Source of the DNA: Aphrocallistes beatrix
Lineage: Eukaryota > Porifera > Hexactinellida > Sceptrulophora > Aphrocallistidae
Assembly (NCBI GenBank): GCA_963281255.1
Contig: OY725488.1
Coordinates: forward strand, 9,893,524-9,957,523
DNA: 64,000 nt
Direction: 5' to 3'
A program made the position numbers and the translations under genes. This document shows, in pieces, positions 7,040 to 62,988 of the stretch. The first letter of the stretch is position 1. The number at the start of each line of letters is the position of its first letter. Below the pieces are notes generated by a model. That model made no database searches. It was not told the origin of the DNA and was given only the letters and a program-made list of their open reading frames with translations.

Positions 7040-7091
7040 CTCCGAGTTTTGTAAATTCGGAGTCACATACCATATTCCCTTTTCAAACACT

Positions 7092-40345: not shown

Positions 40346-41605
40346 ATGGCAACAGCAGATCCAGGATCTGGTCCTGTTAGTTTATTCGGAGTGAGCAACA
40401 AACTCCAGAGTAAAGTGAACTCGTTTAGAGAAGAGATTGAAAGGAAGAAGTTGGAAGTAAGAAGAATCAGCAAAGAAATGAGAAGTCTTATCGAAAAGAA
40501 AGAAGAAGAAATAATCCGAGAATTGGATGACATTTGGAAAGAAGTGTGTGCTAGAATGGAGAAGAAGAAAACTGAAACGCAGAAAGAAATTGAAGAAATA
40601 GAAAATCTTAGAAAAGAAATGGAGAGAAGACTTTGTAAACTTAATCCTGCTTCCATCCAATTCAGTCACATATCCGAAGGAATCGATTTAGTGAAAAGGG
40701 AAATGGACATTGATATTCCTAATGTGAAGTTAACGTGGAGGGTTGAAGAATTGAAAGATTGTATAAATAGAATGTGTCGTTGTGATCAACAGATTCTAGT
40801 TTATAATGAAGACACTCGGTATCAACTGAAATGGAGTAAATGCAAGGAAGGAAGAGGAGACAATCAACTCTATCATCCATGGGGTATAGCGACTAATCCT
40901 ATGAATGAGAATATTTATGTAGCTGACAATGAGAATGACAGAGTTCAGATTTTCTCAAGAGAAGGAGAATGGATCAGATCTGTGAAAAATGACGAAATGA
41001 AAATTCCACAAAATATTCTATTTCACAACCAATCAATTTACGTACAATGTAGCAAAGCAATTCTGAAATTGAATGAATCAACTGAGAAGAAAGAAAAGTC
41101 TAAATCTTATGATTTTTATCTCAGAGGTATCTGTACAGATAATATTCATATTTATGTCGGTCAATTGAAGGGAATGAATCTAATAGTGTTAACTCTAGAT
41201 TTGATTGAAGAAAACAGAATATCTCTCAAGACTGAATTCTGTAAACAAGATACTCAAATCAGAGATATATCTCTATCTCAAGAATTGTTTTATATTTTGC
41301 TATTCAATACAGAATTTCCAATTCAAGCATTTTCTAGAGAAGGCATTCTGACAAGATGTGTTGTTAAGAAAGATAGCATTAACTGTGCTTATTGTTTCTG
41401 TCTAGATCAGCAACACAACATCTTAGTAGCAGACTGTGGAGACTCTAAAGTGAAGATATTTTCCAATGAAGGGAAGCTTCTCACTCAGTTCGGTGAGAAA
41501 GGACAGTTCTCTGCACTAACTGGAATATCTTTGAGTGAATTTGGAGATATCGTCACTGTTCAGCAGATCAATTCAAACTTATTGAAAAGTTTCTCTCGTC
41601 CATGA
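40346..41605 (+). CDS. Coiled-coil/NHL-repeat protein, array gene 1
   Basis: 419 aa, single exon, no signal peptide, so probably cytoplasmic. N-terminal tag MATADPGSGPVSLFG (invariant in all six genes), a coiled coil at about 20-120 (heptads through IERKKLEVRR and MEKKKTETQKEI), a conserved linker DIDIPNVKLTWRV (121-133), then an NHL beta-propeller (about 150-415): HPWGIATNPMNENIYVAD (178-194), IQAFSREGILTRC, NILVADCGDSKVKIFS (358-373). It is like TRIM-NHL proteins but lacks RING and B-box, so E3 activity is not expected. TRIM-NHL propellers bind RNA or protein; the ligand here is unknown. The coiled-coil cassette (about 80-118) is type A, unique to this gene. An open extension upstream to 40325 uses TTG and is ignored. 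Confidence 0.9.
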   Translation: MATADPGSGPVSLFGVSNKLQSKVNSFREEIERKKLEVRRISKEMRSLIEKKEEEIIRELDDIWKEVCARMEKKKTETQKEIEEIENLRKEMERRLCKLNPASIQFSHISEGIDLVKREMDIDIPNVKLTWRVEELKDCINRMCRCDQQILVYNEDTRYQLKWSKCKEGRGDNQLYHPWGIATNPMNENIYVADNENDRVQIFSREGEWIRSVKNDEMKIPQNILFHNQSIYVQCSKAILKLNESTEKKEKSKSYDFYLRGICTDNIHIYVGQLKGMNLIVLTLDLIEENRISLKTEFCKQDTQIRDISLSQELFYILLFNTEFPIQAFSREGILTRCVVKKDSINCAYCFCLDQQHNILVADCGDSKVKIFSNEGKLLTQFGEKGQFSALTGISLSEFGDIVTVQQINSNLLKSFSRP

Positions 41606-42129
41606 TTTTTGTGAACTTTTCTATATTTTATGATTATTATCTTTCTTACCATTTTCGCTGTTTTGTTTGTTCATTCTTTTTTTGCAGTATTTATTTATTT
41701 TTCATTTTCCTTAAAGCTGATTCAATTGTGTTATAATTAATACATTAATATCGATTTTGTTATTGTGTTGATGGCTTTGAGTTGTCCTATTGACAATTCT
41801 TTTGCATAAACAACTGCCGCCACCTAGAATGAATCGGAAATCGACATCACTGCACCACCCACTCCAGACCTCCCAAATTCCAATTTCGTTGTGTGTTCCA
41901 CATGGTTTCAGTTGCTAGATGAGACCATTGTCACTATTGCCTCACAATTTATAATTTACGAAATAGTATTTATCTCACGACTTGTCTCATGATATCACAC
42001 GATTCAGCTAGAATAGAGTCTGAGGAACCTACCCCTCTGTCACAGTTTGTCATATTTTAATTGTTCCATTTATGATTGATCAGCCCCTTTATCCAAACTA
42101 TATTGTAGTATCCTAGATTTCAATTCCAA
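41606..42129. other. NHL-unit spacer with an unidentified coding relic
   Basis: At about 41845-41960 one plus frame reads DITAPPTPDLPNS and continues open for 30-odd codons. A related stretch (VNATAPPPPGLSTPISSC) lies at about 56757-56911 after NHL gene 4. It is a degenerate fragment of a gene I do not recognise, carried along in the repeated unit. Confidence 0.4.
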
Positions 42130-43318
42130 ATGATTCCATTTACCTCTGACATAAATGGAATCAAGGAATCACAGAGAGATCTGTCTGACTCTGATGAAGA
42201 CGGAGTTCTGACCGCCGTAGGAGACATCCCCACAGAATGGTACAGAGACTTCTCACACATCGGCTATGACTTGGAAGGGAAGCGAGTGCTGAAGCCTGCC
42301 TCCGGGGACCAGCTGGACAAGTTCCTGGAAGGAGTGGAGGACCCCTCAGGTCTGTGGAAGAGCGTCAGAATGCCGGACCTCCCTGGCACAGACCTGCTCC
42401 TGTCAGAGAAAGAGATGGAAATGGTGCAGCGCATTCAGAAGGCGGACTACCCTGACAGTGAGTTCGATCCCTACCCCCCCCCCCCCCCCACCATCGAGTT
42501 CTACACCTCTGAAAAGATGGAGACGCCGCTGATTGGAGCTGACGAGCCAAAGCGCAGGTTCATTCCTTCCAAGTGGGAGCACCAGAAGGTGATGAAGCTA
42601 GTGGTGGCTATCAGGAACGGTTGGATTAAACCCAGGAAAGAGTTCGAGATTGAAGAGAAGCCCTATTTCCATCTTTTATGGTCGGATACTCCGGATGATG
42701 ACAAGAGCAGTAAAGATACGCTGCCACACATTCCAGCGCCTAAATTGCGTCTCTCAGGACACAGAGAGTCGTACCGCCCCCATCCGAGTACCTCCCCTCC
42801 TCAGGAGAGGAGGAGAAGTGGAACGGAAAGAACAAGCGAGAGAGAAAGCTGGGTGAGTTCCTTCCCACCCAGTATGCCTCCATGCTAGACATCCCCGCCT
42901 ACCCCAGATCTACCAGGAGGGATTCTCTCGCTGTCTCGACCTCTACCTCTGTCCTCGAGAACCTAAGCTCAAGACTAACCCTGAACTCCAGCCTAGAGAT
43001 CTGCTGCCTGAGTTGCCTAAGCCTAGAGACCTGCAGCCGTTCCCAACACAGGTCTCACTGAATTATGTCGGACATAAGGGGAGTGTCACGTGCGTTTCTT
43101 CACACCCTGACGGACGCGTGATAGCGTCAGAAGAGTGGACAGGAGCGTGAGGGTGTGGGACGGCGGTACCAACATAATAGCTGCAGTCAGGACTGTAGAG
43201 TGATGTGGTTTGATTTAACTATCGACTAAGCCTTACAAGACCCTGAGACACCATAAAAGAGCTGTTCGCTCAGTGACTTTCCATCATCACTCCCTTATAT
43301 AAGGACCAGGAACCATTC
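42130..43318 (+). pseudogene. BOP1: BOP1 relic 2 (longest; N-terminal region plus a late WD40 fragment)
   Basis: BOP1 N-terminal domain from [20 protein letters not shown] through [49 protein letters not shown] poly-C tract (42475-42490) adds four prolines without shifting the frame. After IPAYPR the frame shifts by one base and LDLYLCPREPKLK and the first WD40 repeat (GHKGSVTCVSSHPDG) follow. An internal deletion then joins VRVWD to sequence of a late WD40 blade (DCRVMWFDLTID, then in another frame PYKTLRHHKRAVRSVTFHHH). Short of a full ~740-residue BOP1 and with stops, so dead. Functional BOP1 acts with PES1 and WDR12 in 60S ribosome assembly. Confidence 0.88.
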
Positions 43319-43405
43319 TGTTGAGTCCAAATATATTACTTTCAAATCTAATTGATGTTTGTTTGGGCGCGTATGTTTTTTCAATTTCGTTTTATATCTT
43401 GTATA

Positions 43406-43881: not shown

Positions 43882-44061
43882 TATTTCTGGAGTTTAACTT
43901 TCACAGATTAATGCAAAGATGTAATTGAAATTCTGGTGTTTCATGCTTAATTTGATAATTTATCTGAAATAGAGGAGTTATAAGCAACTGAGATTGATAC
44001 AGCACAGACCTAGTTTAAAGAAGTGAAATATATTTAGAATAGTCGCTGCAACTAGTAGTAT

Positions 44062-44250: not shown

Positions 44251-44546
44251 ATTGGAAAATCCTATATAAACTCATGGTGTGTAGAGTTGTTTATGGTTTC
44301 TGGTTGCTATGGTAGAGCAATTTTATATTACTAGTATGGAATGCACCAACTGTAAAATATCTATGTAAATTGAAATATGGACTACTGTGTATGTTCAAAC
44401 TGACTTGATTCTACTGCATTGTGAGAATAGTACTATGCCTAAACTAATTATAGAAATACAACGGATAAGAACAAATAAGATTACTCTACCACAGCTTAAT
44501 GTATTTAAGTGAATTGAATTATGAACTTATATTAGATATAGACTTT

Positions 44547-44553
44547 TATATAA
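44547..44553 (+). promoter_or_regulatory. TATA box of NHL array gene 2
   Basis: TATATAA 44 bp before the ATG at 44591, within the promoter block conserved across the array. Confidence 0.6.
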
Positions 44554-44590
44554 CTGAACTGTTCTTAATTGAAATAATAGCGAATCCATA

Positions 44591-45862
44591 ATGGCAACAG
44601 CAGATCCAGGATCTGGTCCTGTTAGTTTATTCGGTGTGAGTAACAAACTCCAGAATAAGGTGAACTCGTTTAGAGAAGAGATTGAAAGGAATAAGTTGGA
44701 AGTGAGAAGAATCAGCAAAGAAATGAGAAGTCTTATCGAAAAGAAAGAAGAAGAAATAATCCGAGAATTGGATAATATTTGGAAAGAAGTGAATACTAGA
44801 ATGGCGAAGAAGAAAACTGAGACCCAGAAAAAGATTGAAGAAATCAAATCAAAAGCTGAAGAACTTGAAATATTACTGAGAGAAATAAATCAAAACTCAG
44901 AGCTAAAAATTGACATTTCTCAATCAATCGAAACAGCTAAAAGAGAAATGGATATTGATATTCCTAATGTGAAGTTAACGTGGAGAGTAGATGAATTGAA
45001 AGATTGTATAAATAGAGTGTGTCGTTGTGATCGCCAGATTCTAGTTTATAATGAAGATACTCGGTTTCAACTGAAATGGAGTAAATGCGACAAAGGAAGA
45101 GGAGACAATCAACTCTATCTTCCATGGGGAATAGCGACTAATCCTATGAATGAGAATATTTATGTGGCTGACCAATGGAATCACAGAGTTCAGATTTTCT
45201 CTAGTGAAGGAGAATGGATCAGATCTGTGAAAGATGACGAAATGAAACATCCACTAAATATTCTATTTCACAAACAATCAATTTACGTACAATGTAATAA
45301 AGCAATTCTGAAATTGAATGAATGCACTGAGAAGAACGAAAAGTCTAAATCTTATGATTTTAATCTCGGAGGTATCTGTACAGATAATATTCATATTTAT
45401 GTCGGTGAATGGAAGGGAATGAATCTAATAGTGTTAACTCTAGATTTGATTGAAGAAAACAGAATATCTCTCAAGACTGAATTCTGTCAACAAGATACTG
45501 AAATCAGAGATATATCTCTATCTCAAGAATTGTTTTACATTTTGCTATTCAATACAGAATTTCCAATTCAAGCATTTTCTAGAGAAGGCATTCTGACAAG
45601 ATGTGTTGTTAAGAAAGATAGCATTAACAATGCTTATTGTTTCTGTCTAGATCAGCAACACAACATCTTAGTAGCAGACTGTGGAGACTCTAAAGTGAAG
45701 ATATTTTCCAATGAAGGGAAGCTACTCGCTCAGATCGGTGAGAAAAGATCTGAGAAAGGACAGTTCTCTGCACTAACTGGAATTTCTTCAAGTGAATTAG
45801 GAGATATTGTCACTGTTCAGCGAAGTACTTCGAATTTATTGAAGCGTTTTTCTTTTTTATGA
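44591..45862 (+). CDS. Coiled-coil/NHL-repeat protein, array gene 2
   Basis: 423 aa, same architecture and invariant N-terminus as array gene 1. The coiled-coil cassette is type B (KIEEIKSKAEELEILLREIN), found only here. Propeller differences from gene 1 fall at the recurrent variable sites: LYLPWG, DQWNHRV, MKHPLN, CNKAI, VGEWKG, ending QRSTSNLLK. It has an EKRSEK insertion before GQFSALTG where gene 1 has none. No lesion. Confidence 0.9.
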   Translation: MATADPGSGPVSLFGVSNKLQNKVNSFREEIERNKLEVRRISKEMRSLIEKKEEEIIRELDNIWKEVNTRMAKKKTETQKKIEEIKSKAEELEILLREINQNSELKIDISQSIETAKREMDIDIPNVKLTWRVDELKDCINRVCRCDRQILVYNEDTRFQLKWSKCDKGRGDNQLYLPWGIATNPMNENIYVADQWNHRVQIFSSEGEWIRSVKDDEMKHPLNILFHKQSIYVQCNKAILKLNECTEKNEKSKSYDFNLGGICTDNIHIYVGEWKGMNLIVLTLDLIEENRISLKTEFCQQDTEIRDISLSQELFYILLFNTEFPIQAFSREGILTRCVVKKDSINNAYCFCLDQQHNILVADCGDSKVKIFSNEGKLLAQIGEKRSEKGQFSALTGISSSELGDIVTVQRSTSNLLKRFSFL

Positions 45863-46873
45863 TTGCTCCTTGAATTTTGAACATTTGTTTTTCATTATAT
45901 TTCTTATAATTATCCTTTCTATTATCCATGTTTTGTGTTTACATTCGTCTATATTATTGCATAATGCTGCTATCTTGCTATTTTCATTATTCTTGAACTG
46001 TTGATCGTTCATTGTTTTATAATTAGTGTATTGAATGCTGGTTACTAGAACATGTTCTTATAACCAGCCTAAATTAGACATTTAGTACAAGTCAACTGTT
46101 TTCGAGTTGACTGTTCTTAAACCGGTATAGAATTTATAATATCCTAAATATATATAGAATTCAAAGGAGCAGAATAGATAAGATTCTGTTAATCGAGTTG
46201 TGGTTCTTATAACAGACACATTCTTAGACCTGGTGTTCTTATGTCTGGCATCTACTGTACATTGAGATATTAATTTCTGAGATAATTTTGATTTCTTCTT
46301 GTCGCGTATTTTAAATATTTTCTTTTGACATTTTTACTAATTTTATAGTGGTAATTTGACTGAAATAGCAAGCACGGTATTATCACTATATCCACTATCA
46401 TTTGTATCTATTTTTAGTTTAGCTCCTAGTGTATGGGATGCCTTGTGTCATGATCAGTGTGCGACTTCCGTCTACTCGCTCATGGAAATTCTATTGGAAC
46501 TATTATATATCGTTTGTTTCTCATTGTGGGTGTATTGCCATTGAAGTATCATAGTGTCGGATACATATCGTTCAATGAAGTCATTTAAATGAAAATCACT
46601 TAAAAATCTCAAATAGGCTAGCCATCATATATACTTAATTTAAACTTCATTCTATTTCATGAAATATCCTTTTTCAAAATCAAGGACATTTAGAAGTATC
46701 GTAGAGATCTGGAGTGATCATATCCTGCCACACGATTTGTTGAATCGCAAGTTTGAGAGGCTTGCTCCTCTGTCACGTTTTGTCAGGATTTAATTATCCA
46801 CATTTTGTTTGTACATTTCCTCTGAAGTATTTGAGATTTTAATTTCTAATAATTCCATTTACATCTGAGATAA
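45863..46873. other. NHL-unit spacer
   Basis: Non-coding. The segment near 46340-46410 (TAGTGGTAATTTGACTGAAATA ... ATCACTATATCCACTATC, here in shortened form) recurs after genes 3, 4, 5 and 6 and marks a unit boundary. No gene. Confidence 0.45.
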
Positions 46874-48034
46874 ATGGAATCAAGGAATCACATATAGAAG
46901 CACTCACAGAGTCTGGAAGAGAGTCTGTCTGACTCTGATGAAGACGGAGTTCTGAACGCCGTGGGAGACATCCCCACAGAATGGTACAGAGACTTCCCAC
47001 ACATCGGCTATGACTTGGAAGGGAAGCGAGTGCTGAAGCCTGCCTCCGGGGACCAGCTGGACAAGTTCCTGGAAGGAGTGGAGGACCCCTCAGGTCTGTG
47101 GAAGAGCGTCAGAATGCCGGACCTCCCTGGCACAGACCTGCTCCTGTCAGAGAAAGAGATGGAAATGGTGCAGCGCATTCAGAAGGCGGACTACCCTGAC
47201 AGTGAGTTCCATCCCTACCCCCTACCATCGAGTTCTACACCTCTGAAAAGATGGAAACGCCGCTCATTGGAGCTGACGAGCCAAAGCGCAGGTTCATTCC
47301 TTCCGAATGGGAGCACCAGAAGGTGATGAAGCTAGTGGTGGCTATCAGGAACGGTTGGATTAAACCCAGGAAAGAGTTGGAGATTGAAGAGAAGCCCTAT
47401 TTCCATCTTTTATGGTCGGATACTCCGGATGATAACAAGAGCAGTAAAGATACGCTGCCACACATTCCAGCGCCTAAATTGCGTATCCAGGGACACAGAG
47501 AGTCGTACCGCCCCCCACCCGAGTACCTCCCCTCCTCAGAAGAGGAGGAGAAGTGGAACGGAAAGAGCAAGCGAGAGAGAAAGCTGGGAGAGTTCCTTCC
47601 CACCCAGTATGCCTCCATGTTAGACATCCCCGCCTACCCCAGATCTACCAGGAGAGATTCTCTCGCTGTCTCGACCTCTACCTCTGTCCCCGAGAACCTA
47701 AGCTCAAGACTAACCCTAAACTCCAGCCTAGAGATCTGCTGCCTGAGTTGCATAAGCCTAGAGACCTGCAGCCGTTCCCAACACAGGTCTCACTGAATTA
47801 TGTCGGACACAAGGGGAGTGTCACGTGCGTTTCTTCACACCCTGACGGACGCGTGATAGCGTCAGGGGGAGTGGACAGGAGCGTGAGGGTGTGGGAGGTT
47901 GCTACTGGGAGGTGTTTACGTCTGATTGAGTTGGAAGACAGTGTGAGTGACTTGGAATTCTCTCCCACACCAGCTCACACGCTCTTGCTAGCTGGTAGCG
48001 GAGAGTCAGTGCTGATCATTAATCATAAGATAGG
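46874..48034 (+). pseudogene. BOP1: BOP1 relic 3
   Basis: Same N-terminal BOP1 region as relic 2. Lesions: TAG at codon 8 (46895-46897), a one-base loss near 47220 (the proline tract before the STPLKR reading, after which the frame resumes as METPLIGADEPKRR), and the shared one-base frameshift after IPAYPR. The last part reads one WD40 repeat (GHKGSVTCVSSHPDG, VRVWEVATGRCLR) and ends after LIINHKIGN, beyond which sequence is unrelated to BOP1. Confidence 0.88.
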
Positions 48035-48936
48035 AAACTTCCCATTTTCTCGATATTCTATTGATTTAATTTCCACTTTATTTCATTATTCTATTGATCT
48101 AGTTTTCACGAGTGCACTGCTTTCACATGAAATTTACCAATAATGTCCCGAATTTTTATTCTATGTAAAATATGTTTTAATCTGTTCTGCCTTGCCTGCG
48201 AGATTCAACGCTGCGTCTTGCTTCTTTTATTCCTCAAGTTGGTATTATGTAAATTCAATCTTTTCATAAAGTGCAATACATTCAAACTAAAAGTCTGATT
48301 TTAGATTCTAAATCTACAAATTCAAATTAAATTTCATAGTTGAACAAATATATTACATTACTCAACTCAATGAATAATATTATCACCCTGTGCCAGCTTA
48401 GGTAATTCAAGGTGATTCATGTCATCTATAAAATAGGCATATGTGGCATGAAGATATTAGTTTCAATTCGATTTTAAAGGATGTTCATTTTTAAGTGTTA
48501 GTTGTTAATCTCGATTTGTAATTTATGCATATTTTAAAATTATAACATGATCTTCAGAAGTTAAAATTTGAGAGAGAATCGGCAGTTTCAAGCTAAACTT
48601 GATAATTTATCTGCAAACGAGGAGTTAAAAATTTTAATATAATTCAAATAGTAAATGTATAGCTGAGTAGTATAGGAATTCTGGTTACTTTTGGATAGGA
48701 ATTTAATATTATGTAAAACATGGTATATTCACTACTGTTTAAGTTGAAACATATATTCTACTGCATGGTGATAGAAGTTTATGCATAGACTTAATATAGA
48801 AACACAATGGATAAGAACGAATAAGATTATTCTACCACAGCTTAATTAATATATTTAAATGAATTGAATTGTAGACTCATTAAATCTACTTTTATATAAC
48901 TGAACTGTTTTTAATTGAAATATTAGCAAATCTATA
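48035..48936. other. Spacer and promoter region of NHL array gene 3
   Basis: 48170-48430 matches 53690-53960 and, more weakly, 60820-61010 (GATTCAACGCTGCGTC, AAAGTCTGATTTTAGATT). The last 150 bp are the conserved NHL promoter block with TATATAA at 48893-48899. No gene. Confidence 0.5.
48893..48899 (+). promoter_or_regulatory. TATA box of NHL array gene 3
   Basis: TATATAA 44 bp before the ATG at 48937. Confidence 0.6.
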
Positions 48937-50214
48937 ATGGCAACAGCAGATCCAGGATCTGGTCCTGTTAGTTTATTCGGAGTGAGTAACAAACTCCAGA
49001 GTAAAGTGAACTCGTTTAGAGAAGAGATTGAAAGGAAGAAGTTGGAAGTAAGAAGAGCCAGCAAAAAAATGAGAAGTCTTATCGAAAAGAAAGAAGAAGA
49101 AATAATCCGAGAATTGAATGCTATTTGGGAAGAAGTGAATACTAGAATGGAGAAAAGGAAAACAGATATTCAGACTAAAATCGGAGTCCTCGATGCCAAG
49201 GCGAAAGAAATGGAGCAACTATTCACCGAATTAAATCCAGGAAGTGGTCCACTACTTAATATTTCTGAGAAACTCAATTCAGTGAGAAGAGAAATGGACA
49301 TTGATATTCCTAATGTGAAGTTAACGTGGAGAGTGGAAGAATTGAAAGATTGTATAAATAGAATGTGTCGTTGTGATCAACAGATTCTAGTTTATAATGA
49401 AGATACTCGGTATCAACTGAAATGGAGTAAATGCGAAGAAGGAAGTGGAAACAATCAACTCTATCTTCCATGGGGTATAGCGACTAATCCTATGAATGAG
49501 AATATTTATGTAGCTGACCAATTAAATAACAGAGTTCAGATTTTCTCTAAGGAAGGAGAATGGATCAGATCTGTGAAAGATGACGAAATGAAATATCCAC
49601 AAAATATTATATTTCACAACCAATCAATTTACGTACAATGTAGTAGTAATGGATCAATTCTGAAATTGAATGAATCTACTGAGAAGAAAGAAAAGTCTAA
49701 ATCTTATGATTTTCCTCTCAGAGGTATCTGTACAGATAATATTCATATTTATGTCGGTCAATGGAAGGGAATGAATCTAATAGTGTTAACTCTAGATTTG
49801 ATTGAAGAAAACAGAATATCTCTCAAGACTGAATTCTGTAAACAAGATACTCATATCAGAGATATATCTCTATCTCAAGAATTGTTTTATATTTTGCTAT
49901 TCAATACTGAATTTCCAATTCAAGCATTTTCTAGAGAAGGCATTCTGACAAGATGTGTTGTTAAGAAAGATAACATTAACAGTGCTTATTGTTTCTGTCT
50001 AGATCAGCAACACAACATCTTAGTAGCAGACTGTGGAGACTCTAAAGTGAAGATATTTTCCAATGAAGGGAAGCTACTCACTCTGTTCGGTGAGAAAGGA
50101 TCTGAGAAAGGACAGTTCTCTTCACTAACTGGAATATCTTTGAGTGAATTAGGAGATATTGTCACTGCTCAACGAAATCCTCCGAATTTATTGAATCGTT
50201 TTTCTCTTTTATGA
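48937..50214 (+). CDS. Coiled-coil/NHL-repeat protein, array gene 3
   Basis: 425 aa, architecture as array gene 1. The coiled-coil cassette is type C (KIGVLDAKAKEMEQLFTELN), identical to that of gene 5, 8 kb away, not to its neighbours. Variable propeller sites: LYLPWG, DQLNNRV, MKYPQN, CSSNGSI (two extra residues), VGQWKG, ending QRNPPNLLN. It has the GSEKG insertion before QFSSLTG. No lesion. Confidence 0.9.
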   Translation: MATADPGSGPVSLFGVSNKLQSKVNSFREEIERKKLEVRRASKKMRSLIEKKEEEIIRELNAIWEEVNTRMEKRKTDIQTKIGVLDAKAKEMEQLFTELNPGSGPLLNISEKLNSVRREMDIDIPNVKLTWRVEELKDCINRMCRCDQQILVYNEDTRYQLKWSKCEEGSGNNQLYLPWGIATNPMNENIYVADQLNNRVQIFSKEGEWIRSVKDDEMKYPQNIIFHNQSIYVQCSSNGSILKLNESTEKKEKSKSYDFPLRGICTDNIHIYVGQWKGMNLIVLTLDLIEENRISLKTEFCKQDTHIRDISLSQELFYILLFNTEFPIQAFSREGILTRCVVKKDNINSAYCFCLDQQHNILVADCGDSKVKIFSNEGKLLTLFGEKGSEKGQFSSLTGISLSELGDIVTAQRNPPNLLNRFSLL

Positions 50215-50325
50215 TTGCTCTCTGAATTTCAACTTTTATTTTTATTTTCTAATGGTGTTTGTAATAATTATCCTTTCTATTATCGTTGTTTTGTGTTTAC
50301 ATTCGTCTATATTACTTTCATAATG

Positions 50326-51822
50326 ACAAGCACGCTTCGCTTGCTTGTGCTGCGCGGCTTGCGGACACTGCGTGTCCACAGAGTCGCCCTGCGGGCGCCT
50401 GGAGTCACTCAATCAAACATATTTTGGATTTTTTTCCTTTAAATAAATATTGTAAACAAAGGTCGACAAATAATTTCTCATATGGATCCGAAAATATAAT
50501 ATTCAAAATCTACAGCACTACAAACCCCATGTCAACCGTTGGAAGCTAGATTCTAGCCCATTTTTGTAATTTGTTTACTTTATGTATCTAAGGTAAACAA
50601 AATTAAACAAATTGATCTTCAAATTTACTCGAAAAATGATATTCGAAATCTACACCCCTAAAAAACCCATGTCAACCGTTTAAAGCAAGTTTCTGGCATA
50701 TTTTTGAGTTTTGTTTACTTTATGTATCTAATGTAACAAAAGTAAACAAATAATTCATTATATCGATCTGAAAATATGATAAACGAAATCTACACCATTA
50801 AAAACCCCATGTCAACCGTTTGAAGCTAGTTTCTAGCATATTTTTGAGATTTGTTTACTTTATGTATCTATTGTAAACAAAAATAAACAAATAATTCATT
50901 ATATCGATCTGAAAATATGATAAACGAAATCTACACCATTAAAAACCCCATGTCAACCGTTGGAAGCTAGTTTCTAGCATATTTTTGAGATTTGTTTACT
51001 TTATGTATCTATTGTAAACAAAAATAAACAAATAATTCATTATATCGATCTGAAAATATGATATTCGAAATCTACACCCCTAAAAACCCCATGTCAACCG
51101 TTGGAGGCTAGTTTCTAGCATATTTTTGAGATTTGTTTACTTTATGTATCTATTGTAAACAAAAGTAAACAAATAATTCATTATATCGATCTGAAAATAT
51201 GATATTCGAAATCTACACCCCTAAAAACCCCATATCAACCTTTGGAAGCTAGTTTCTAGAATATCTTTGAGATTTGTTTACTTTATGTATCTAATGTAAA
51301 CAAAAGTAAACAAATAATTTATCATATACATCTGAAAATATGATATTCCAAATCTACACCCCTGAAAACCCCATGTGACCCGTTGGAAGCTAGTCTCTAG
51401 CATTATTTTCAAAATTAATCAAATGGTGTGAAAATATGTATATAAAGGTGTGAAAATATGCAGATAATCTTTTTTATAGCCATACACTATAATACATTTA
51501 AGATATCAAACATAAGTTGTGGCTTTGAAGTATTAATAACAATGACGATCTATTTGTTGTAGTGTCGTACTTGTACAATGATTTCTATTGTAATAGTGTA
51601 GTCATTTATTTTGTATAGAAAAGGTGCGAAAAATTGTTTTCCATTTTTTTTGCAGAGGTGTGAAAATTTCGCTTAGATCTTAGAACTTAATCGTAGATTC
51701 ATCATTTGAAACCTACATGCCAATTTTCGTATCTCTACGACTTGCCAATTCTTCAATCAATTCGAACAAACAAACAAACAAACAAACAAACAAACAAATC
51801 CTAGCATTTTAATATATAAGAT
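50326..51822 (+). mobile_element. Helitron-like element with minisatellite (long copy)
   Basis: Inserted in the spacer after NHL gene 3: the flanks ATTCATAATG-like on the left and TTAATTTGACTGAAATA on the right match the continuous spacer after gene 2. Order: GC-rich head (CACGCTTCGCTTGCTTGTGC), 140/141-bp tandem array, GGTGTGAAAATATG-rich tail, (CAAA)7, end AATATATAAGAT. Without it, the spacing to the next NHL gene is about 4.2 kb, like the other units. No replication protein is encoded. Confidence 0.6.
50437..51400 (+). repeat. 140/141-bp minisatellite array, about seven units
   Basis: CTTTATGTAT recurs at 50578, 50718, 50858, 50999, 51140 and 51281; an eroded first unit precedes. The third and fourth units share a private variant (GATAAACGAAATCTACACCATT), indicating local unit duplication. 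Confidence 0.9.
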
Positions 51823-52409: not shown

Positions 52410-53570
52410 TGGAATCAATGAATGACAGAAAGAAGCACTCACAGAGTCTGGAAGAGAGTCTGTCTGACTCTGATGAAGACGGAGTTCTGAACGCCGTAGG
52501 AGACATCCCCACAGAATGATACAGAGACTTCCCACACATCGGCTATGACTTGGAAGGGAAGCGAGTGCTGAAGCCTGCCTCCGGGGACCAGCTGGACAAG
52601 TTCCTGGAAGGAGTGGAGGACCCCTCAGGTCTGTGGAAGAGCGTCAGAATGCCGGACCTCCCTGGCACAGACCTGCTCCTGTCAGAGAAAGAGATGGAAA
52701 TGGTGCAGCGCATTCAGAAGGCGGACTACCCTGACAGTGAGTTCGATCCCTATCCCCCTACCATCGAGTTCTACACCTCTGAAAAGATGGAGACGCCGCT
52801 CATTGGAGCTGACGAGCCAAAGCGCAGGTTCATTCCTTCCAAGTGGGAGCACCAGAAGGTGATGAAGCTAGTGGTGGCTATCAGGAACGGTTGGATTAAA
52901 CCCAGGAAAGAATTCGAGATTGATGAGAAGCCCTATTTCCATCTTTTATGGTCGGATACTCCGGATGATAACAAGAGCAGTAAAGATACGCTACCACACA
53001 TTCCAGCGCCTAAATTGCGTCTCCCGGGACACAGAGAGTCCTACCGCCCCCCACCCGAGTACCTCCCCTCCTCAGAAGAGGAGGAGAAGTGGAACGGGAA
53101 GAGCAAGCGAGAGAGAAAGCTGGGAGAGTTCCTTCCCACCCAGTATGCCTCCATGCTAGACATCCCCGCCTACCCCAGATCTACCAGGAGAGATTCTCTC
53201 GCTGTCTCGACCTCTACCTCTGTCCCCGAGAACCTAAGCTCAAGACTAACCCTGAACTCCAGCCTAGAGATCTGCTGCCTGAGTTGCCTAAGCCTAGAGA
53301 CCTGCAGCCGTTCCCAGCACAGGTCTCACTGAATTATGTCGGACATAAGGGGAGTGTCACGTGCGTTTCTTCACACCCTGACGGACGCGTGATAGCGTCA
53401 GGGGGAGTGGACAGGAGCGTGAGGGTGTGGGAGGTTGCTACTGAGGGGTGTTTACGTCTGATTGAGTTGGAAGACAGTGTGAGTGACTTGGAATTCTCTC
53501 CCACACCAGCTCACACGCTCTTGCTAGCTGGTAGCGGAGAGTCAGTGCTGATCATTAATCATAAGATTGG
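52410..53570 (+). pseudogene. BOP1: BOP1 relic 4
   Basis: Best preserved of the middle part: open from the [20 protein letters not shown] region to IPAYPR. Lesions: the Trp codon of PTEWY is TGA (52517-52519), then the same one-base frameshift after IPAYPR as relics 2 and 3. The first WD40 repeat is present and BOP1 homology ends after LIINHKIGN, as in relic 3. Relics 3 and 4 therefore come from one duplicated unit. Confidence 0.88.
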
Positions 53571-54657
53571 AAACTTCCCATTTTCTCGATATTCTATTGA
53601 TATAGTTTTCACGAGTTTCCCGCTTTTGGTGAAGATTTACCAATCATGTCCCGAATTTTTATTCTATGCAGAATATTTTTGACTCTGTCGCCGTGCCTGC
53701 GAGATTCAACGCTGCGTCCTGCTTCTTTTATTCCTCAAGTTGGTGTGTATGTAAATTCAATCTTTTCATAAAGGGCAATACATTCAAACTAAAAATCTGA
53801 TTTTAGATTCTAGATCTACAAATTCGAATTAATCATAGTTGAACAAATATATTACATTACTCAACTCAATGGATAATATTATCACCCTGTGCCAGCTTAG
53901 GTAATTCAAGGTGATTCATGTCATCTATAAAATAGGGATATGTGGCATGAAAATATTAGTTTCAGTTTAAGTTGACTAATTCATGAATTATCAATGAATT
54001 ACTCATAATTTGAAACTAAAATAGTGAAAAAAACATTTGATATTTCGCTTAGGGACTGAGCAATTTTAGAGGTAAATAACATGAGCAACCTTTTAACCAC
54101 TTTTGGGCATAGTATCTGCTCTAAGATTTTGAATAATTCATAATTCTCCATCATCTTTCAATAAATTTGTCAACTTGGGTTTCAATTCGATTTTAACTGG
54201 ATGTTGTTTTTTTTTAAGCGGAGGTTGTTAATCTCGATTTGATTTGAAATTTATGCATATTTATAATATGATCTTCAGAAGTTAAAATTTTAGAGAGAAT
54301 CGGCAGTTTCGAGCTAAACTTGATAATTTATCTGCAAACGAGGAGTTAAAAATTTTAATATCATTTGAATAGTAAATGTATAGTTGAGTAGTATAGGAAT
54401 TCCGTTTAATTTTGGATAGGAATTTAATATTATGTAAAACATGGTATATTCACTACTGTTTAAGTTGAAACTTATATTCTACTGCATGATGAGAGAAGTT
54501 TATGCATAGACTTAATATAGAATCACAATGGATAAGAACGAATAAGATTATTCTACCACAGCTTAATTAATGTATTTAAATGAATTGAATTGTAGACTCA
54601 TTAAATATACTTTTATTTAACTGAACTGTTTTTCATTGAAATATTAGCAAGACTATA
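53571..54657. other. Spacer and promoter region of NHL array gene 4
   Basis: Like the spacer before gene 3, with about 200 bp of extra sequence around 53965-54180. Ends with the conserved NHL promoter block. No gene. Confidence 0.45.
54614..54620 (+). promoter_or_regulatory. TATA-like box of NHL array gene 4
   Basis: TATTTAA 44 bp before the ATG at 54658, at the position of TATATAA in genes 1-3. Confidence 0.5.
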
Positions 54658-55935
54658 ATGGCAACAGCAGATCCAGGATCTGGTCCTGTTAGTTTATTCG
54701 GAGTGAGTAACAAACTCCAGAGTAAAGTGAACTCGTTTAGAGAAATGATAGAAAGGAAGAAGTTGGAAGTAAGAAGAGTCAGCAAAGAAATAAGAAGTCT
54801 TATCGAAAAGAAAGAAGAAGAAATAATCCGAGAATTGGATGCTATTTGGGAAGAAGTGAATACTAGAATGGAGAAAAAGAAAACTGAAACTCAAAAGAAA
54901 ATATATGAGTTAGAGAGTAAGAAAAAAGAGATTGATAAAATTCTTCTTGAACTCAATCCAACCGAGACACAATTCCCTCTTCAATTTTCTGAAGCAATAG
55001 AAAGAGCGAAGGAAGAAATGGATATTGATATTCCTAATGTGAAATTAACGTGGAGAGTGGATGAATTGAAAGATTGTATAAATAGAATGTGTCGTTGTGA
55101 TCAACAGATTCTAGTTTATAATGAAGACACTCGGTATCAATTGAAGTGGAGTAAATGCGAGGAAGGAAGTGGAGACAATCAACTCTCTTGTCCATGTGGT
55201 ATAGCGACTAATCCTATGAATGAGAATATTTATGTAGCTGACCAATTGAATCACAGAGTTCAGATTTTCTCTAGAGAAGGAGAATGGATCAGATCTGTGA
55301 AAGATGACGAAATGAAAATTCCACAAAATATTCTATTTCACAACCAATCAATTTACGTACAATGTCATACAGCAATTCTGAAATTGAATGAATCCACTGA
55401 GAAGAAAGAAAAGTCTAAATCTTATGATTTTTGTCTCAGAGGGATCTGTACAGATAATATATATATTTATGTCGGTCAATGTATTGGAATGAATCTAATA
55501 GTGTTAACTCTAGATTTGATTGAAGAAAACAGAATATCTCTCAAGACTGAATTCTGCCAAGAAGACACTGAAATCAGAGATATATCTCTATCCCAAGAAT
55601 TGTTTTACATTTTGCTATTCAATACAGAATTTCCAATTCAAGTATTTTCTAGAGAAGGCATTCTGACAAGATGTGTTGTTAAGAAAGATAGCATTAACTG
55701 TGCTTATTGTTTCTGTCTAGATCAGCAACATAACCTCTTAGTAGCAGACAATGGAGACTCTAAAGTGAAGATATTTTCCAATGAAGGGAAGCTACTCACT
55801 CAGTTCGGTGAGAAAGGATCTGAGAAAGGACAGTTCTCCGCATTAATTGGTATTTACTTTTTGAATGAATTAGGAGATATTGTCACTGTTCAGTGGACGA
55901 AATCAAATGTATTGAAGTGTTTCTCTCGTTTATGA
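54658..55935 (+). CDS. Coiled-coil/NHL-repeat protein, array gene 4
   Basis: 425 aa, architecture as array gene 1. The coiled-coil cassette is type D (KIYELESKKKEIDKILLELN), shared with gene 6. Variable propeller sites: LSCPCG (Trp replaced by Cys), DQLNHRV, MKIPQN, CHTAI, VGQCIG, ending QWTKSNVLK; also NLLVADNGDS where others have NILVADCGDS. No lesion. Confidence 0.9.
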   Translation: MATADPGSGPVSLFGVSNKLQSKVNSFREMIERKKLEVRRVSKEIRSLIEKKEEEIIRELDAIWEEVNTRMEKKKTETQKKIYELESKKKEIDKILLELNPTETQFPLQFSEAIERAKEEMDIDIPNVKLTWRVDELKDCINRMCRCDQQILVYNEDTRYQLKWSKCEEGSGDNQLSCPCGIATNPMNENIYVADQLNHRVQIFSREGEWIRSVKDDEMKIPQNILFHNQSIYVQCHTAILKLNESTEKKEKSKSYDFCLRGICTDNIYIYVGQCIGMNLIVLTLDLIEENRISLKTEFCQEDTEIRDISLSQELFYILLFNTEFPIQVFSREGILTRCVVKKDSINCAYCFCLDQQHNLLVADNGDSKVKIFSNEGKLLTQFGEKGSEKGQFSALIGIYFLNELGDIVTVQWTKSNVLKCFSRL

Positions 55936-57412: not shown

Positions 57413-58684
57413 ATGGCAACAGCAGATCCAGGATCTGGTCCTGTTAGTTTATTCGGAGTGAGTAACAAACTCCAGAATAAAGTGAACTCGTTTAGAGAAA
57501 TGATTGAAAGGAAGAAGTTGGAAGTAAGAAGAATCAGCAAAGAAATGAGAATTCTAATCGAAAAGAAAGAAGAAGCAATAATCCAAGAATTGAATGCTAT
57601 TTGGGAAGAAGTGAATACTAGAATGGAGAAAAGGAAAACAGATATTCAGACTAAAATCGGAGTCCTCGATGCCAAGGCGAAAGAAATGGAGCAACTATTC
57701 ACCGAATTAAATCCAGGAAGTGGTCCACTACTTAATATTTCTGAGAAACTCAATTCAGTGAGAAGAGAAATGGACATTGATATTCCTAATGTGAAGTTAA
57801 CGTGGAGAGTGGAAGAATTGAAAGATTGTATAAATAGAATGTGTCGTTGTGATCAACAGATTCTAGTTTATAATGAAGATACTCGGTATCAACTGAAATG
57901 GAGTAAATGCAAGGAAGGAAGAGGAGACAATCAACTATATGGTCCATGTGGTATAGCGACTAATCCTATGAATGGGAATATTTACGTAGCTGACCAATCG
58001 GATAACAGAGTTCAGATTTTCTCTAGAGAAGGAGAATGGATCAGATCTGTGAAAGATGACGAGATGAAATATCCACAAAATATTCTATTTCACAACCAAT
58101 CAATTTACGTACAATGTAATACAGCAATTCTGAAATTGAATGAATCTACTGAGAAGAAAGAAAAGTCTAAATCTTATGATTTTAATCTCAGAGGTATCTG
58201 TACAGATAATATTCATATTTATGTCGGTCAATGTATTGGAATGAATCTAGTAGTGTTAACTCTAGATTTGACTGAAGAAAACAGAATATCTCTCAAGACT
58301 GAATTCTGTAAACAAGATAATGAAATCAGAGATATATCTCTATCTCAAGAATTATTTTACGTTTTGCTATTCAATACAGAATTTCCAATTCAAGCATTTT
58401 CTAGAGATGGCATTCTGACAAGATGTGTTGTTAAGAAAGATAGCATTAACTCTGCTTATTCTTTCTGTCTAGATCAGCAACACAACATCTTAGTAGCAGA
58501 CTGTGGAGACTCTAAAGTGAAGATATTTTCCAATGAAGCGAAGCTTCTCACTCAGTTCGGTGAGAAAGCATCTAAAAAAGGACAGTTCTCTGGACTTACT
58601 GGAATATCCTTGAGTGAATTAGGAAATATTGTCACTGTTCAGCAGAGAAATTCAAACTTATTGAAATGTTTCTTTCGTTTATGA
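57413..58684 (+). CDS. Coiled-coil/NHL-repeat protein, array gene 5
   Basis: 423 aa, architecture as array gene 1. The coiled-coil cassette is type C, with the same amino acids as in gene 3 and apparently the same bases, while the regions around it differ (for example MRILIEKKEEAIIQEL upstream). Variable propeller sites: LYGPCG, DQSDNRV, MKYPQN, CNTAI, VGQCIG (as in gene 4), ending QQRNSNLLK. So its cassette resembles gene 3 but parts of its propeller resemble gene 4: a mosaic. No lesion. Confidence 0.9.
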   Translation: MATADPGSGPVSLFGVSNKLQNKVNSFREMIERKKLEVRRISKEMRILIEKKEEAIIQELNAIWEEVNTRMEKRKTDIQTKIGVLDAKAKEMEQLFTELNPGSGPLLNISEKLNSVRREMDIDIPNVKLTWRVEELKDCINRMCRCDQQILVYNEDTRYQLKWSKCKEGRGDNQLYGPCGIATNPMNGNIYVADQSDNRVQIFSREGEWIRSVKDDEMKYPQNILFHNQSIYVQCNTAILKLNESTEKKEKSKSYDFNLRGICTDNIHIYVGQCIGMNLVVLTLDLTEENRISLKTEFCKQDNEIRDISLSQELFYVLLFNTEFPIQAFSRDGILTRCVVKKDSINSAYSFCLDQQHNILVADCGDSKVKIFSNEAKLLTQFGEKASKKGQFSGLTGISLSELGNIVTVQQRNSNLLKCFFRL

Positions 58685-60300: not shown

Positions 60301-61723
60301 AAGGTACAGTTCTCTGATCTCAAATTGAGAAGAAGAAGGTCAGAATGGATTGATGCTAGTGACAGGAAATTGTTGTCACATTAAAGTCATTAATTCAGGT
60401 TTGTCAATTTATTTGAGGTCGTCATACCCACGAAAGAGTTGGAAACAGAATATTGACGGAGACTAAGAGATCGTGAGTAGAGTACGAAATAAAGTTTCGA
60501 GAGAGATGACAGCGAGAGCATCTATTTTACTGTTATTTTAACATAGTTTGTTACAAATGAAAGCAAATATAGTTATTCTGAATGATATTGAATTAATTAA
60601 GTTGATTACAATTATGCTGTTACATTTATGAATAGGTAATATCAGGAAATGGAAGTCCTAACGACATTAAATAGCTTGTAAGCTAATGAGATATATTTTT
60701 GAGAATTTAAATTTCCATTCTTTACTTTTCCATGGTACATTTGATACCAGGGCTTTATCAATGAACAACATGTATAGTGGTTAAAATGTGGTTAAAATTC
60801 AAATACTCTATTACGTTCGCCAAATTCAACGCTGCTTCCCAATTTTTCATGGTTCAGATTGGCATGTATGTGAATTAAATCATTTCATGGAAGAAGAATA
60901 CGTTCAAATCTTTTGAGATACTAAAAGTCTGATTTTAGATTTCAAGACTACAAAATCGAGTTAATCATTGCTGAACATATCAAATGAATTACTCAACTCA
61001 ATGAACAATATTATCAGCTTAAACCACCATATATCATTCATTGCCACATGTATAGTGGTTACATGGGCGTATGTGACATAAAGATATTCGTTCTAATTCA
61101 GATTTGGATGTGTATTTGTAAGCGTATGCGTGTTAATCTCGAATTCTAACTTTAACGCATATTTTTGAACTAACATGATCTTCACAAATTAAGATTTGAG
61201 AGAAATTCGGCAGTTTCAAGTTTGACTTGATGAATTAACCCATGCATGCCAACCTGAGCCATGACAAAAGCGTGACGCAATAGAAATGTATTATACACGA
61301 AGAATCAACAATGCGGAACATGACAGGGAGATTTCATGTAACAACGGGAGAGAAAGTAGTTCTGTAGAAAAGGTAAACGATCATCTGAGATTGGCACAGC
61401 TTAAATCTAGTTGAAGGAGAATGAATTAAATTTTGAATATCTTTATTGCATCTAAATTTGTGAAGTTGCTCGTTGCTATGGTATGCGAATATAATATTAC
61501 TCAAGATAGAAATACATTATATATTCACTCCTGTGTAAGTTGAGACTTAAACATGATGAGAAAAGTACTATGCATAGGCTTAATATTGTAACACAATTGA
61601 TAAGAACCAATAAGAATACTCTAGCACAGCTTAATGTATTTAAATGAATTGAAATATGAACTCTCATTAAAATCTAATTCTATATAACTGAACTGTTTTA
61701 ATTTGAATAATAGCAAATCTATA
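60301..61723. other. Spacer and promoter region of NHL array gene 6
   Basis: From 60820 it resembles the spacers before genes 3 and 4, and from 61018 the region before gene 1. Ends with the promoter block, TATATAA at 61681-61687. No gene. Confidence 0.45.
61681..61687 (+). promoter_or_regulatory. TATA box of NHL array gene 6
   Basis: TATATAA 43 bp before the ATG at 61724. Confidence 0.55.
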
Positions 61724-62988
61724 ATGGCAACAGCAGATCCAGGATCTGGTCCTGTTAGTTTATTCGGAGTGAGCAACAAACTCCAGAGTAAAGTGAACTC
61801 GTTTAGAGAAGTGATTGAAAGGAAGAAGTTGGAAGTAAGAAGAGTTAGCAAAGAAATGAGAAGTCTTATCCAAGAGAAAGAAGAATCAATAATCCGAGAA
61901 TTAGATGCTATTTGGAAAGAAGTGAATACTAGAATGGAGAAGACGAAAACTGAAACTCAAAAGAAAATACGAGAATTAGAGAGTAAGAAAAAAGAGATTG
62001 ATAAAATTCTTCTTGAACTCGATCCAGAAGAGACACAATTCCCTCAATTTTCTGAAGCGATAGAAAGAGCGAAGAAGAAAGAAAAAGACATTGATATTCC
62101 TAATGTGAAGTTAACGTGGAAAGTGGATGAATTGAAAGATTGCATAAATAGAATGTGTCGTTGTGATCAACAGATTCTAGTTTATAATGAAGATACTCGG
62201 TATCAACTGAAATGGAGTAAATGCGAGGAAGGAAGAGGAGACAATCAACTCTATCGTCCATGGGGTATAGCGACTAATCCTATGAATGAGAATATTTATG
62301 TAGCTGACCAATGGAATCACAGAGTTCAGATTTTCTCTAGAGAAGGAGAATGGATCAGATCTGTGAAAGATGACGAAATGAAAATTCCACAAAATATTCT
62401 ATTTCACAACCAATCAATTTACGTACAATGTTGTAGTGCAATTCTGAAATTGAATGATTTCACTGAGAAGAAAGAAAAGTCTAAATCTTATGATTTTCAT
62501 CTCAGAGGTATCTGTACAGATAATATTCATATTTATGTCGGTAAATGGAAGGGAATGAATCTAATAGTGTTAACTCTAGATTTGATTGAAGAAAACAGAA
62601 TATCTCTCAAGACTGAATTCTGTAAACAAGATACTGAAATCAGAGATATATCTCTATCTCAAGAATTGTTTTATATTTTACTATTCAATACAGAATATTT
62701 CCAATTCAAGCATTTTCTAGAGAAGGCATTCTGACAAGATGTGTTGTTAAGAGAGATAGCATTAACAATACTTTTTGTTTCTGTCTAAATCAGCAACACA
62801 ACATCTTAGTAGCAGACTATGGATACTCTAAAGTGAAGATATTTTCTAATGAAGGGAAGCTACTCACTCAGTTCGGTGAGAAAGGACAGTTCTCTGCATT
62901 AATTGGAATCTCTTTGAGTGAATTAGGAGATATTGTCACTGTTCAGCAGAGCAATTCAAACCTATTGAAATTTTTCTCTCCTTTATGA
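61724..62988 (+). pseudogene. Coiled-coil/NHL-repeat gene 6, frameshifted
   Basis: Same architecture as the other array genes with cassette type D (KIRELESKKKEIDKILLELD, close to gene 4) and variable sites LYRPWG, DQWNHRV (as gene 2), CCSAI, VGKWKG. Near 62695 there is a two-base insertion: CAGAATATTTCC where the other five have CAGAATTTCC. The frame is lost and a stop follows at 62734. Homology continues in another frame to a TGA at 62986-62988 (NILVADYGYSKVKIFS, QQSNSNLLK). A recent pseudogene, or a sequencing or assembly error, since the rest is undamaged. Confidence 0.8.

What the first reader, a model, noticed from the sequence alone, without database searches (positions are those of the whole stretch)
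40346..62988. Tandem NHL family with exchangeable coiled-coil cassettes and hot-spot variation in the propeller
Six neighbouring genes share an invariant N-terminus and linker, but a ~40-residue segment of the coiled coil exists in four versions: A (gene 1), B (gene 2), C (genes 3 and 5), D (genes 4 and 6). Like cassettes are not in adjacent genes, so they move independently of the flanks. In the propeller, nearly all differences fall at a few recurring sites (x in LYxPxG, DQxxxRV, MKxPxN, Cx(x)AI, YDFxL, VGxxxG, and the end QxxxxNLL), while the strands between are the same. The variable sites recur at similar places in successive repeats, as expected for loops on one face. This is the pattern of a diversifying recognition family, with gene conversion supplying cassettes. 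Seen: the pattern. Inferred: selection and recognition function.
Basis: partly seen in the sequence, partly recalled or inferred. Interest (0 to 1): 0.85.

Follow-up and report, generated by a model that had tools for sequence, protein, structure and literature searches.

The report
Animal recognition-gene array with hypervariable binding face
A run of near-identical animal genes makes propeller-shaped proteins that differ mainly where related proteins grip their targets, and whose stalk segments are swapped between genes, which is how families that recognise many different targets usually look.

Summary
The pattern is real, and larger than the window. The six genes belong to a tandem array with 22 listed copies (19 intact) in an animal-like genome with some 286 NHL loci in capped lists. 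They are short, apparently intronless coiled-coil + six-bladed NHL proteins; no RING or B-box was found. Two processes are superimposed. (1) Propeller: about 8% of codons evolve with dN/dS near 10 (M1a/M2a 2dlnL 215.8; 24 recombining null simulations reached at most 11.6). Of 16 selected sites, 13 lie in the blade registers by which zebrafish LIN41 contacts RNA; a separate array on another contig puts 16 of 17 there. (2) Coiled coil: the cassettes are old, constrained modules (dN/dS 0.25) that occur in several arrays and reject the flanks' trees, so exchange moves them; they are not themselves under diversifying selection. Best explanation: a germline-encoded intracellular recognition repertoire, convergent with the fungal HNWD WD40 receptors. 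Ligand and purpose (immunity, allorecognition, RNA) are not shown.

The parts
40346..41605 (+). Gene 1, coiled coil + NHL propeller, intact; cassette type A at about 40559-40699
44591..45862 (+). Gene 2 (reference for residue numbers), intact; cassette type B at about 44804-44944; propeller residues ~166-423
48937..50214 (+). Gene 3, intact; cassette type C at about 49150-49290; no difference from gene 5 at the compared polymorphic sites of codons 58-162
54658..55935 (+). Gene 4, intact; cassette type D at about 54871-55014
57413..58684 (+). Gene 5, intact; cassette type C at about 57626-57766
61724..62988 (+). Gene 6, type D cassette at about 61937-62080; reading frame broken near 62,697, remainder in another frame; left out of the selection and exchange tests
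45113..45859 (+). Gene 2 propeller from residue 175 on; 16 codons selected in the 19-gene array (residues 177, 179, 195, 196, 198, 220, 222, 236, 237, 245, 258, 274, 275, 300, 347, 364) and 4 weaker ones (394, 396, 411, 412)
44331..44590 (+). Region upstream of gene 2; alignable with most home-array genes (10028059 is diverged), with a TATA-like stretch close to the ATG and an in-frame stop just before codon -6; fits a short 5' leader and an intronless gene, no transcript seen
   Evidence: 19 upstream regions aligned

Best explanation
A germline-encoded repertoire of intracellular recognition proteins. Each gene makes a coiled coil plus a six-bladed NHL propeller, with no RING or B-box found. 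The loops entering strand a (around P in xPxG) and joining strands b and c (after the VAD motif) of each blade build one face, and this face is hypervariable under strong positive selection while the rest of the scaffold is constrained (selection at these positions SHOWN from sequence; the face geometry INFERRED from LIN41 and from general propeller knowledge). Gene conversion or unequal exchange inside the array homogenises scaffold stretches and re-combines segments: N-terminus, coiled-coil cassette, linker, propeller and C-terminus have conflicting histories (SHOWN). The coiled-coil cassettes are old, constrained alternative modules (SHOWN), most simply pairing or partner-specificity modules that let different recognition heads be attached to different dimers or effectors (INFERRED, the weakest step). 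The repertoire most likely discriminates variable non-self or self ligands (INFERRED).
For: Propeller M2a vs M1a 2dlnL 215.8, 8.1% of sites at dN/dS 9.9, 16 sites with posterior >0.9 (own implementation). Five segment-wise trees: 4 of 5 with p<0.05, summed 2dlnL 110.9. Null simulations under the fitted M1a with labels reshuffled every 10 codons: at most 11.6 in 24. Separate C3 array: 2dlnL 134.5, 17 sites. 12 of the 16 most variable propeller sites in 23 genes outside the array coincide with the 16 selected ones. LIN41 RNA-contact registers hold 13 of 16 (p 8e-12) and 16 of 17 (p 5e-17) selected sites. All 19 intact home genes have different 30-residue faces, mean 15.3 differences. Exchange: incompatibility test 0 of 1000 permutations, significant runs in 16 of 171 pairs, AU conflicts, cassette types across arrays. 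Pfam NHL above cut-off in 6 of 6 genes; no C3HC4-type RING motif in 51 stretches; none of 24 B-box matches in the home, C4 or C3 arrays.
Against: No expression, binding or population data. No 3-D model could be made, so the face is inferred from residue registers. Blade 4 is nearly invariant after its VAD-equivalent and its segment is not significant (p 0.096); the 334-384 segment (2dlnL 10.0) and the N-terminal (14.9) and C-terminal (16.0) signals lie within or only slightly above the recombining null (9.5-11.6 in 3 of 24) and should not be relied on. The null simulations have lower overall dN/dS (0.25) than the data (0.84). Net face charge (+3.7 and +2.9 on average) does not decide between RNA and protein ligands. 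No effector gene was looked for beyond a Pfam scan of ten window ORFs. 3 of the 22 listed array copies are partial or broken, as also expected of a merely expanding family. The clustering at P and D had been seen before the LIN41 check was made.
Confidence: 0.72

Rival explanations
1. Diversified RNA binders: the face keeps the RNA-binding job of LIN41/Brat-type NHL domains, and the family recognises many RNAs, for example viral or transposon RNA, or regulates many transcripts.
For: Selected positions coincide with LIN41's RNA contacts; mean net face charge +3.7 (19 home genes) and +2.9 (14 C3 genes); NHL top faces bind RNA in Brat, LIN41 and Mei-P26 (passages read).
Against: Contact positions of a propeller face would be selected whatever the ligand, as in WD40 receptors. 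Faces are rich in N, S, T, Y rather than dominated by Lys/Arg, and face charge ranges down to -2 in the home set.
Confidence: 0.2
2. Allorecognition or self-labelling rather than defence: the hypervariable face marks individuals, as het genes do in fungi.
For: Paired-site pattern like the het-d/het-e WD40 domain, an allorecognition system.
Against: No hydrophobic N-terminal stretch (peak 12-residue hydropathy 1.17 in the first 30 residues of 42 proteins), which would suit cell-surface self recognition poorly; one 19-residue stretch reaches 1.74, just above the usual membrane threshold, and was not examined. One assembly only, so no polymorphism data.
Confidence: 0.2
3. Ordinary tandem duplicates with birth, death and gene conversion; the hot spots are an artefact of recombination or relaxed constraint.
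For: Recombination is strong and broken copies occur.
Against: Recombining null simulations reach 2dlnL 11.6 at most, against 215.8. Tree-free minimal counts also show nonsynonymous excess in the register (74:10 against 107:58, p 8e-5). The same registers are hot in a separate array.
Confidence: 0.04
4. Targeted mutagenesis of the hot codons (NNT codons with a fixed third base recall the NNY pattern of diversity-generating retroelements, recalled) rather than selection.
For: Several hot codons are NNT in all 19 genes, for example residue 177 with nine amino acids and a fixed third T.
Against: Over the 13 hot core codons the minimal changes at codon positions 1/2/3 are 26/28/11, as expected from nonsynonymous opportunities (39/43/19%); others such as 236, 237 and 275 change their third base. 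No template repeat or reverse transcriptase association was searched for.
Confidence: 0.03
5. Cassettes have no special role: they are old paralogue-specific sequence left over in a stretch that conversion happens to skip, while the flanks are homogenised.
For: High pS as well as pN in the cassette (0.43-0.61 and 0.28-0.32), no positive selection.
Against: Five genes spread over the array carry a type C cassette identical in protein but have different propellers, so exchange does reach the cassette; type-specific sequence is kept across arrays on different contigs, with dN/dS 0.25 in the home set.
Confidence: 0.3

Closest known systems
TRIM-NHL proteins (TRIM2/3/71, LIN41, Brat, Mei-P26, Thin)
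   Same: Coiled coil followed by a six-bladed NHL propeller; best PDB relatives are Thin (E 8e-27) and TRIM71 (E 1e-17); weak TRIM_CC match below Pfam's cut-off; the diversified positions are LIN41's ligand-contact registers.
   Different: No RING and no B-box found; apparently intronless; some 286 NHL loci (capped lists) rather than a handful; ligand face hypervariable.
Fungal HNWD receptors (het-d, het-e, hnwd; Podospora)
   Same: Beta-propeller with selected sites in pairs around a conserved residue in the d-a loop and in the b-c turn of each blade, with concerted evolution across a gene family (PMC1805685, passages read).
   Different: WD40 not NHL; there a NACHT domain is present and whole repeats are exchanged within and between genes; here the blades of one gene differ from each other and the exchanged units are segments of whole genes, coiled-coil cassettes among them.
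Animal non-self repertoires with variable binding heads (finTRIM/TRIM B30.2, fish NLR-B30.2, SRCR, FREP, VLR; recalled, with PMC3137616, PMC4852459 and PMC10855680 seen only as search listings with the start of the abstract)
   Same: Tandem arrays, positive selection at binding loops, conserved scaffold (recalled).
   Different: Different fold (NHL) and cassette exchange in the coiled coil.
Tachylectin-2 of the coral Oculina (PMC2880987, passages read)
   Same: Invertebrate propeller-type protein with positive selection.
   Different: A lectin, allelic variation at one locus; selected sites there showed no significant spatial clustering.

Membership tests
TRIM-NHL (RBCC-NHL) proteins | NHL repeats forming a six-bladed propeller | tested here: met
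   PF01436 above cut-off in 6 of 6 window genes; six blade units traced by the P/D motifs, in blades 3-6 partly by judgement, and by alignment to Thin and TRIM71. No 3-D model.
TRIM-NHL (RBCC-NHL) proteins | RING finger | tested here: not met
   No Pfam RING hit in the 6 proteins; no C3HC4-type RING motif in six frames of 51 stretches. A distant spliced exon cannot be excluded.
TRIM-NHL (RBCC-NHL) proteins | B-box | tested here: not met
   No hit in the proteins; 24 B-box matches genome-wide (48 candidates scored), none inside the home, C4 or C3 arrays.
TRIM-NHL (RBCC-NHL) proteins | TRIM-type coiled coil | tested here: inconclusive
   TRIM_CC E 2e-5 to 1.4e-3 in 6 of 6, below the curated cut-off; hydrophobic positions recur with a peak at period 3.6 but none at the classical 3.5 (7 periods tried).
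HNWD/NLR receptors | NACHT domain and WD40 repeats | tested here: not met
   Neither listed by Pfam at E up to 0.1 in the 6 proteins.
HNWD-like diversification mode (works like) | Positively selected pairs in d-a and b-c loops of each blade | tested here: met
   13 of 16 and 16 of 17 selected sites in the P and D registers; blade 4 of the home set is an exception. Loop assignment by analogy.
HNWD-like diversification mode (works like) | Concerted evolution or sequence exchange among family members | tested here: met
Diversity-generating retroelement target | Changes confined to the first two bases of NNY-type codons | tested here: not met
   11 of 65 minimal changes in hot codons are at the third base, as expected from selection.
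Diversity-generating retroelement target | Template repeat and dedicated reverse transcriptase | not tested
   Not searched.
Immune or allorecognition receptor | Between-individual polymorphism, induction or effect on non-self response | not testable with these tools
   One unnamed assembly; no expression or population data.

The most novel reading that the evidence does not exclude
A combinatorial intracellular receptor system in an early-branching animal: hundreds of genes whose propeller face has become an antibody-like variable surface at the very residues that NHL proteins otherwise use to grip RNA, and whose coiled-coil cassettes act as exchangeable pairing codes that conversion plugs onto different heads, so that the array can make new head-partner combinations. 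If the ligands are RNAs, this would be a germline repertoire of sequence- or shape-specific RNA sensors.
Probability: 0.15. Interest if true: 0.92.

Novelty: new variant of a known kind. Interest (0 to 1): 0.72.

Why it matters
Repertoires of germline-encoded recognition genes are known on LRR, Ig, B30.2, SRCR and WD40 scaffolds (recalled, WD40). A hypervariable NHL family was not seen in seven searches aimed at one or in three on related subjects; only open-licence PMC is held, and searches listed 12 of 24, 12 of 1,564 and 10 of 95 papers. The match of selected sites with LIN41's RNA contacts makes two questions directly testable: whether NHL propellers can be general-purpose recognition heads, and whether NHL-based sensing parallels TRIM- and NLR-based immunity. 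The separation of an exchangeable, constrained coiled-coil cassette from a diversified head suggests a modular design open to pairing assays.

Tried and rejected
Diversity-generating hypermutation: considered because hot codons such as residue 177 are NNT with a fixed third base; rejected on codon-position counts. Recombination artefact: tested with segment trees, tree-free counts and simulations; rejected for the propeller as a whole, not excluded for the weak N-terminal, C-terminal and 334-384 signals. Positive selection on the cassettes: tested and not found. Upstream RING/B-box exon: no C3HC4-type motif in 51 stretches, no B-box match in the arrays, and an in-frame stop closely upstream of the start (6 to 17 codons lie between stop and start in the 19 intact home genes). 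3-D model: tool switched off, so faces were assigned by register. Species: no tool could name the genome; many SRCR domains (151 matches, 150 of 308 candidates scored) and the small genome suggest a sponge to me, but the collagen-IV search rang nowhere, controls included, and carries no weight. One search placed loci with minus-strand matches in the wrong orientation, mended. One search was a failed script, rerun. Three of twelve blade anchors of the C3 set were misplaced by one residue and corrected; the C3 rows are superseded.
Full report
WHERE IT IS. The window is G000:C1:9893524-9957523 of an unnamed 100.5 Mb genome in 28 contigs. The genome is animal-like: 24 B-box matches, TRIM-like coiled coils and 151 SRCR matches from 150 of 308 candidates scored. 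A sponge is my guess from the SRCR expansion and genome size; no tool named the organism, and the collagen-IV search is uninformative because no control rang.

THE GENES. The five intact window genes are single open frames of 419-425 codons from the start MATADPGSGPVSLFG; gene 6 is frameshifted near 62,697. Only 6 to 17 codons lie between the nearest in-frame stop upstream and the start in the 19 intact home-array genes, and the upstream regions align, one of them (10028059) poorly, with a TATA-like stretch near the start. This fits an intronless gene, but no transcript was seen. Pfam finds NHL above cut-off in all six and a TRIM coiled coil below cut-off. The best PDB relatives are Thin (E 8e-27) and TRIM71. 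No C3HC4-type RING motif was seen in 51 stretches, and none of 24 B-box matches lies in the home, C4 or C3 arrays.

SIZE OF THE FAMILY. A protein search listed 100 matches; 22 lie in the home array C1:9.934-10.029 Mb. Merging the listed starts of three capped searches (353 rows; starts within 1,300 bases taken as one) gives 286 distinct NHL loci; the lists are capped, so there are probably more, and some may be other kinds of NHL protein. From the loci I could fetch, 42 intact genes were extracted and 31 fragment or disrupted ORF pieces were set aside. 19 of the 42 are in the home array.

TWO KINDS OF VARIATION. In the 19 home genes, residues 76-118 have pS 0.43-0.61 and pN 0.28-0.32; residues 1-45 have pS 0.02-0.09 and residues 164-384 0.00-0.19. 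The cassette is therefore old sequence in a young background. Codon models on segment-specific trees (my own implementation of M0, M1a and M2a with plain posterior site probabilities, not PAML) give: cassette M0 dN/dS 0.25, 2dlnL 0; linker 2dlnL 0; N-terminus 14.9; propeller 177-384 2dlnL 215.8, with 8.1% of sites at dN/dS 9.9 and 16 sites with P>0.9; C-terminus 385-423 16.0 with four sites. In 24 null simulations under the fitted M1a, with tree labels reshuffled every 10 codons, the statistic reached at most 11.6, and three reached 9.5 or more. The propeller result is safe; the N- and C-terminal ones are not. With a separate tree for each of five segments, four have p<0.05, the last of them (334-384, 2dlnL 10.0) no higher than the recombining null, and blade 4 is not significant (p 0.096). 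A tree-free minimum count gives 74 nonsynonymous to 10 synonymous changes at 20 register codons, against 107 to 58 at the other 231 (p 8e-5). By simple pairwise counting the 30 register codons have pN 0.29 and pS 0.13, the rest of 134-384 pN 0.03 and pS 0.06; pS in the register is raised too, at least in part because codons with several changes are split over paths.

THE SAME SITES ELSEWHERE. In the 23 intact genes outside the home array, 12 of the 16 most variable propeller sites are among the 16 selected ones. A second array at C3:2.10-2.25 Mb (the 14 best-scoring of 22 matches listed there) gives 2dlnL 134.5 and 17 selected sites in its propeller half, and 2.1 (not significant) in its N-terminal half. 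It has no comparable cassette split (pS at most 0.28 there).

WHERE THE SITES ARE. Kumari et al. (PMC5908797, passages read) name 14 DrLIN41 residues that contact RNA. Through the alignment (numbering offset inferred from residue identity; ten read directly in that chain; Arg611, Tyr658, Trp660 and Arg752 placed by spacing and by related TRIM71 chains) all 14 sit at P-2, P-1 or P+1 of the xPxG motif, or at D+1 or D+2 after the VAD motif. These five registers in six blades hold 13 of 16 selected sites in the home propeller (24 of 208 positions, p 8e-12), 17 of 20 with the C-terminus (29 of 247), and 16 of 17 in C3 (30 of 280, p 5e-17). Outside are 198 (D+4), 245 and 300 in the home set and 185 (D+4) in C3. 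In blades lacking a literal P or D the anchors were set by alignment, which is a judgement, and I had seen the clustering before the LIN41 check. All 19 home genes have different 30-residue faces, 10 to 22 differences apart. Mean net charge is +3.7 (home) and +2.9 (C3), rich in N, S, T, Y. Which loops make up the top face is from PMC1805685 for WD40 and from general knowledge for NHL.

EXCHANGE. A local-compatibility test is beyond 1000 permutations, and 16 of 171 pairs have significant shared runs. Genes 3 and 5 agree at all compared polymorphic sites over codons 58-162, while gene 3 and the copy at 9984254 agree over codons 324-423. One copy pair (9977233/9989880) is identical over the first 176 codons and differs, mostly nonsynonymously, from residue 177 on. 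AU tests: cassette, N-terminal, linker and C-terminal data reject each other segment's tree, and propeller data reject the trees of the other four segments. Not rejected: the combined flank tree by propeller data (the propeller is part of it), the all-data tree by cassette data (p 0.27), and the N-terminal tree by flank data (p 0.09); flank data do reject the cassette tree (p 0.003). In 38 genes (four deeply diverged ones dropped) cassettes form ten types at 65% identity; six have more than one member, and five of these six occur in two or more arrays (arrays binned by me from position), types A and D on both C1 and C4. Pairs of different type in one array average 41% identity in the cassette and 87% in the propeller; pairs of one type in different arrays 66% and 82%. 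Result against a simple story: array labels cluster about equally well on cassette (11 changes) and propeller (10) trees, so cassettes do not move entirely freely between arrays.

MUTATION OR SELECTION. Several hot codons are NNT with a fixed third base, which recalls retroelement-driven diversification. Over 13 hot core codons the minimal changes at positions 1, 2 and 3 are 26, 28 and 11, against nonsynonymous opportunities of 39, 43 and 19%. Ordinary mutation plus selection suffices.

MECHANISM. Shown: diversifying selection at one set of blade positions; constrained scaffold; exchange among copies; constrained, shared cassettes. Inferred: that these positions form one binding face; that the proteins stay inside the cell (no hydrophobic N-terminal stretch, but one 19-residue stretch reaches hydropathy 1.74, above the usual 1.6 threshold, and was not examined further); that cassettes set pairing or partner choice (hydrophobic positions 82, 85, 92, 96, 99, 109, 113 and 116 are kept in at least 80% of 38 genes while the other cassette positions hold 5.7 residues on average); that the purpose is non-self or allelic recognition.

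KNOWN RELATIVES. The closest mode of evolution is the fungal HNWD family, where selected codons flank a conserved residue in the d-a loop and in the b-c turn of each WD40 blade (PMC1805685, passages read). By descent the domain belongs with TRIM-NHL proteins, but RING and B-box were not found, so these genes are not filed as TRIMs. Ten paper searches, seven of them aimed at it (listed under Why it matters), showed no hypervariable NHL family. PMC3503706 (passages) treats Malin, a RING + NHL protein without B-box, as a TRIM derivative; the sponge grafting paper PMC5450542 has no TRIM, NHL or tripartite as whole words in its main text.

Noticed in passing
window 42079-43076, 46823-48143, 52358-53682: Three similar, partly broken copies of a BOP1 gene fragment (BOP1NT plus start of the WD40 part; Pfam run on a piece of the first and second copy) lie between NHL genes 1-2, 2-3 and 3-4, so the duplicating unit carried a piece of a ribosome-biogenesis gene.
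   Followed up: partly
window 50314-51439: Tandem repeat of about 141 bases downstream of gene 3, copies 63-98% alike to the reference copy.
   Followed up: no
window 3109-4338 and 5849-7090, minus strand: Two neighbouring genes combine an astacin protease domain with a C2 domain, to my knowledge an unusual pairing.
   Followed up: no
window 14619-16507, minus strand: Two further NHL-bearing ORFs, one also matching DUF5128, within the same window.
   Followed up: no
G000:C12:4253726-4265110: Four NHL copies with equal scores spaced exactly 3380 bases: a very recent amplification or an assembly artefact.
   Followed up: no
window 63411-63998, minus strand: ORF that resembles the end of a non-LTR reverse transcriptase by eye (from memory; no Pfam match at E<0.001) beside the array.
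   Followed up: no
G000:C4:4.93-5.82 Mb: Very dense SRCR domain arrays, another likely recognition-gene expansion in the same genome.
   Followed up: no
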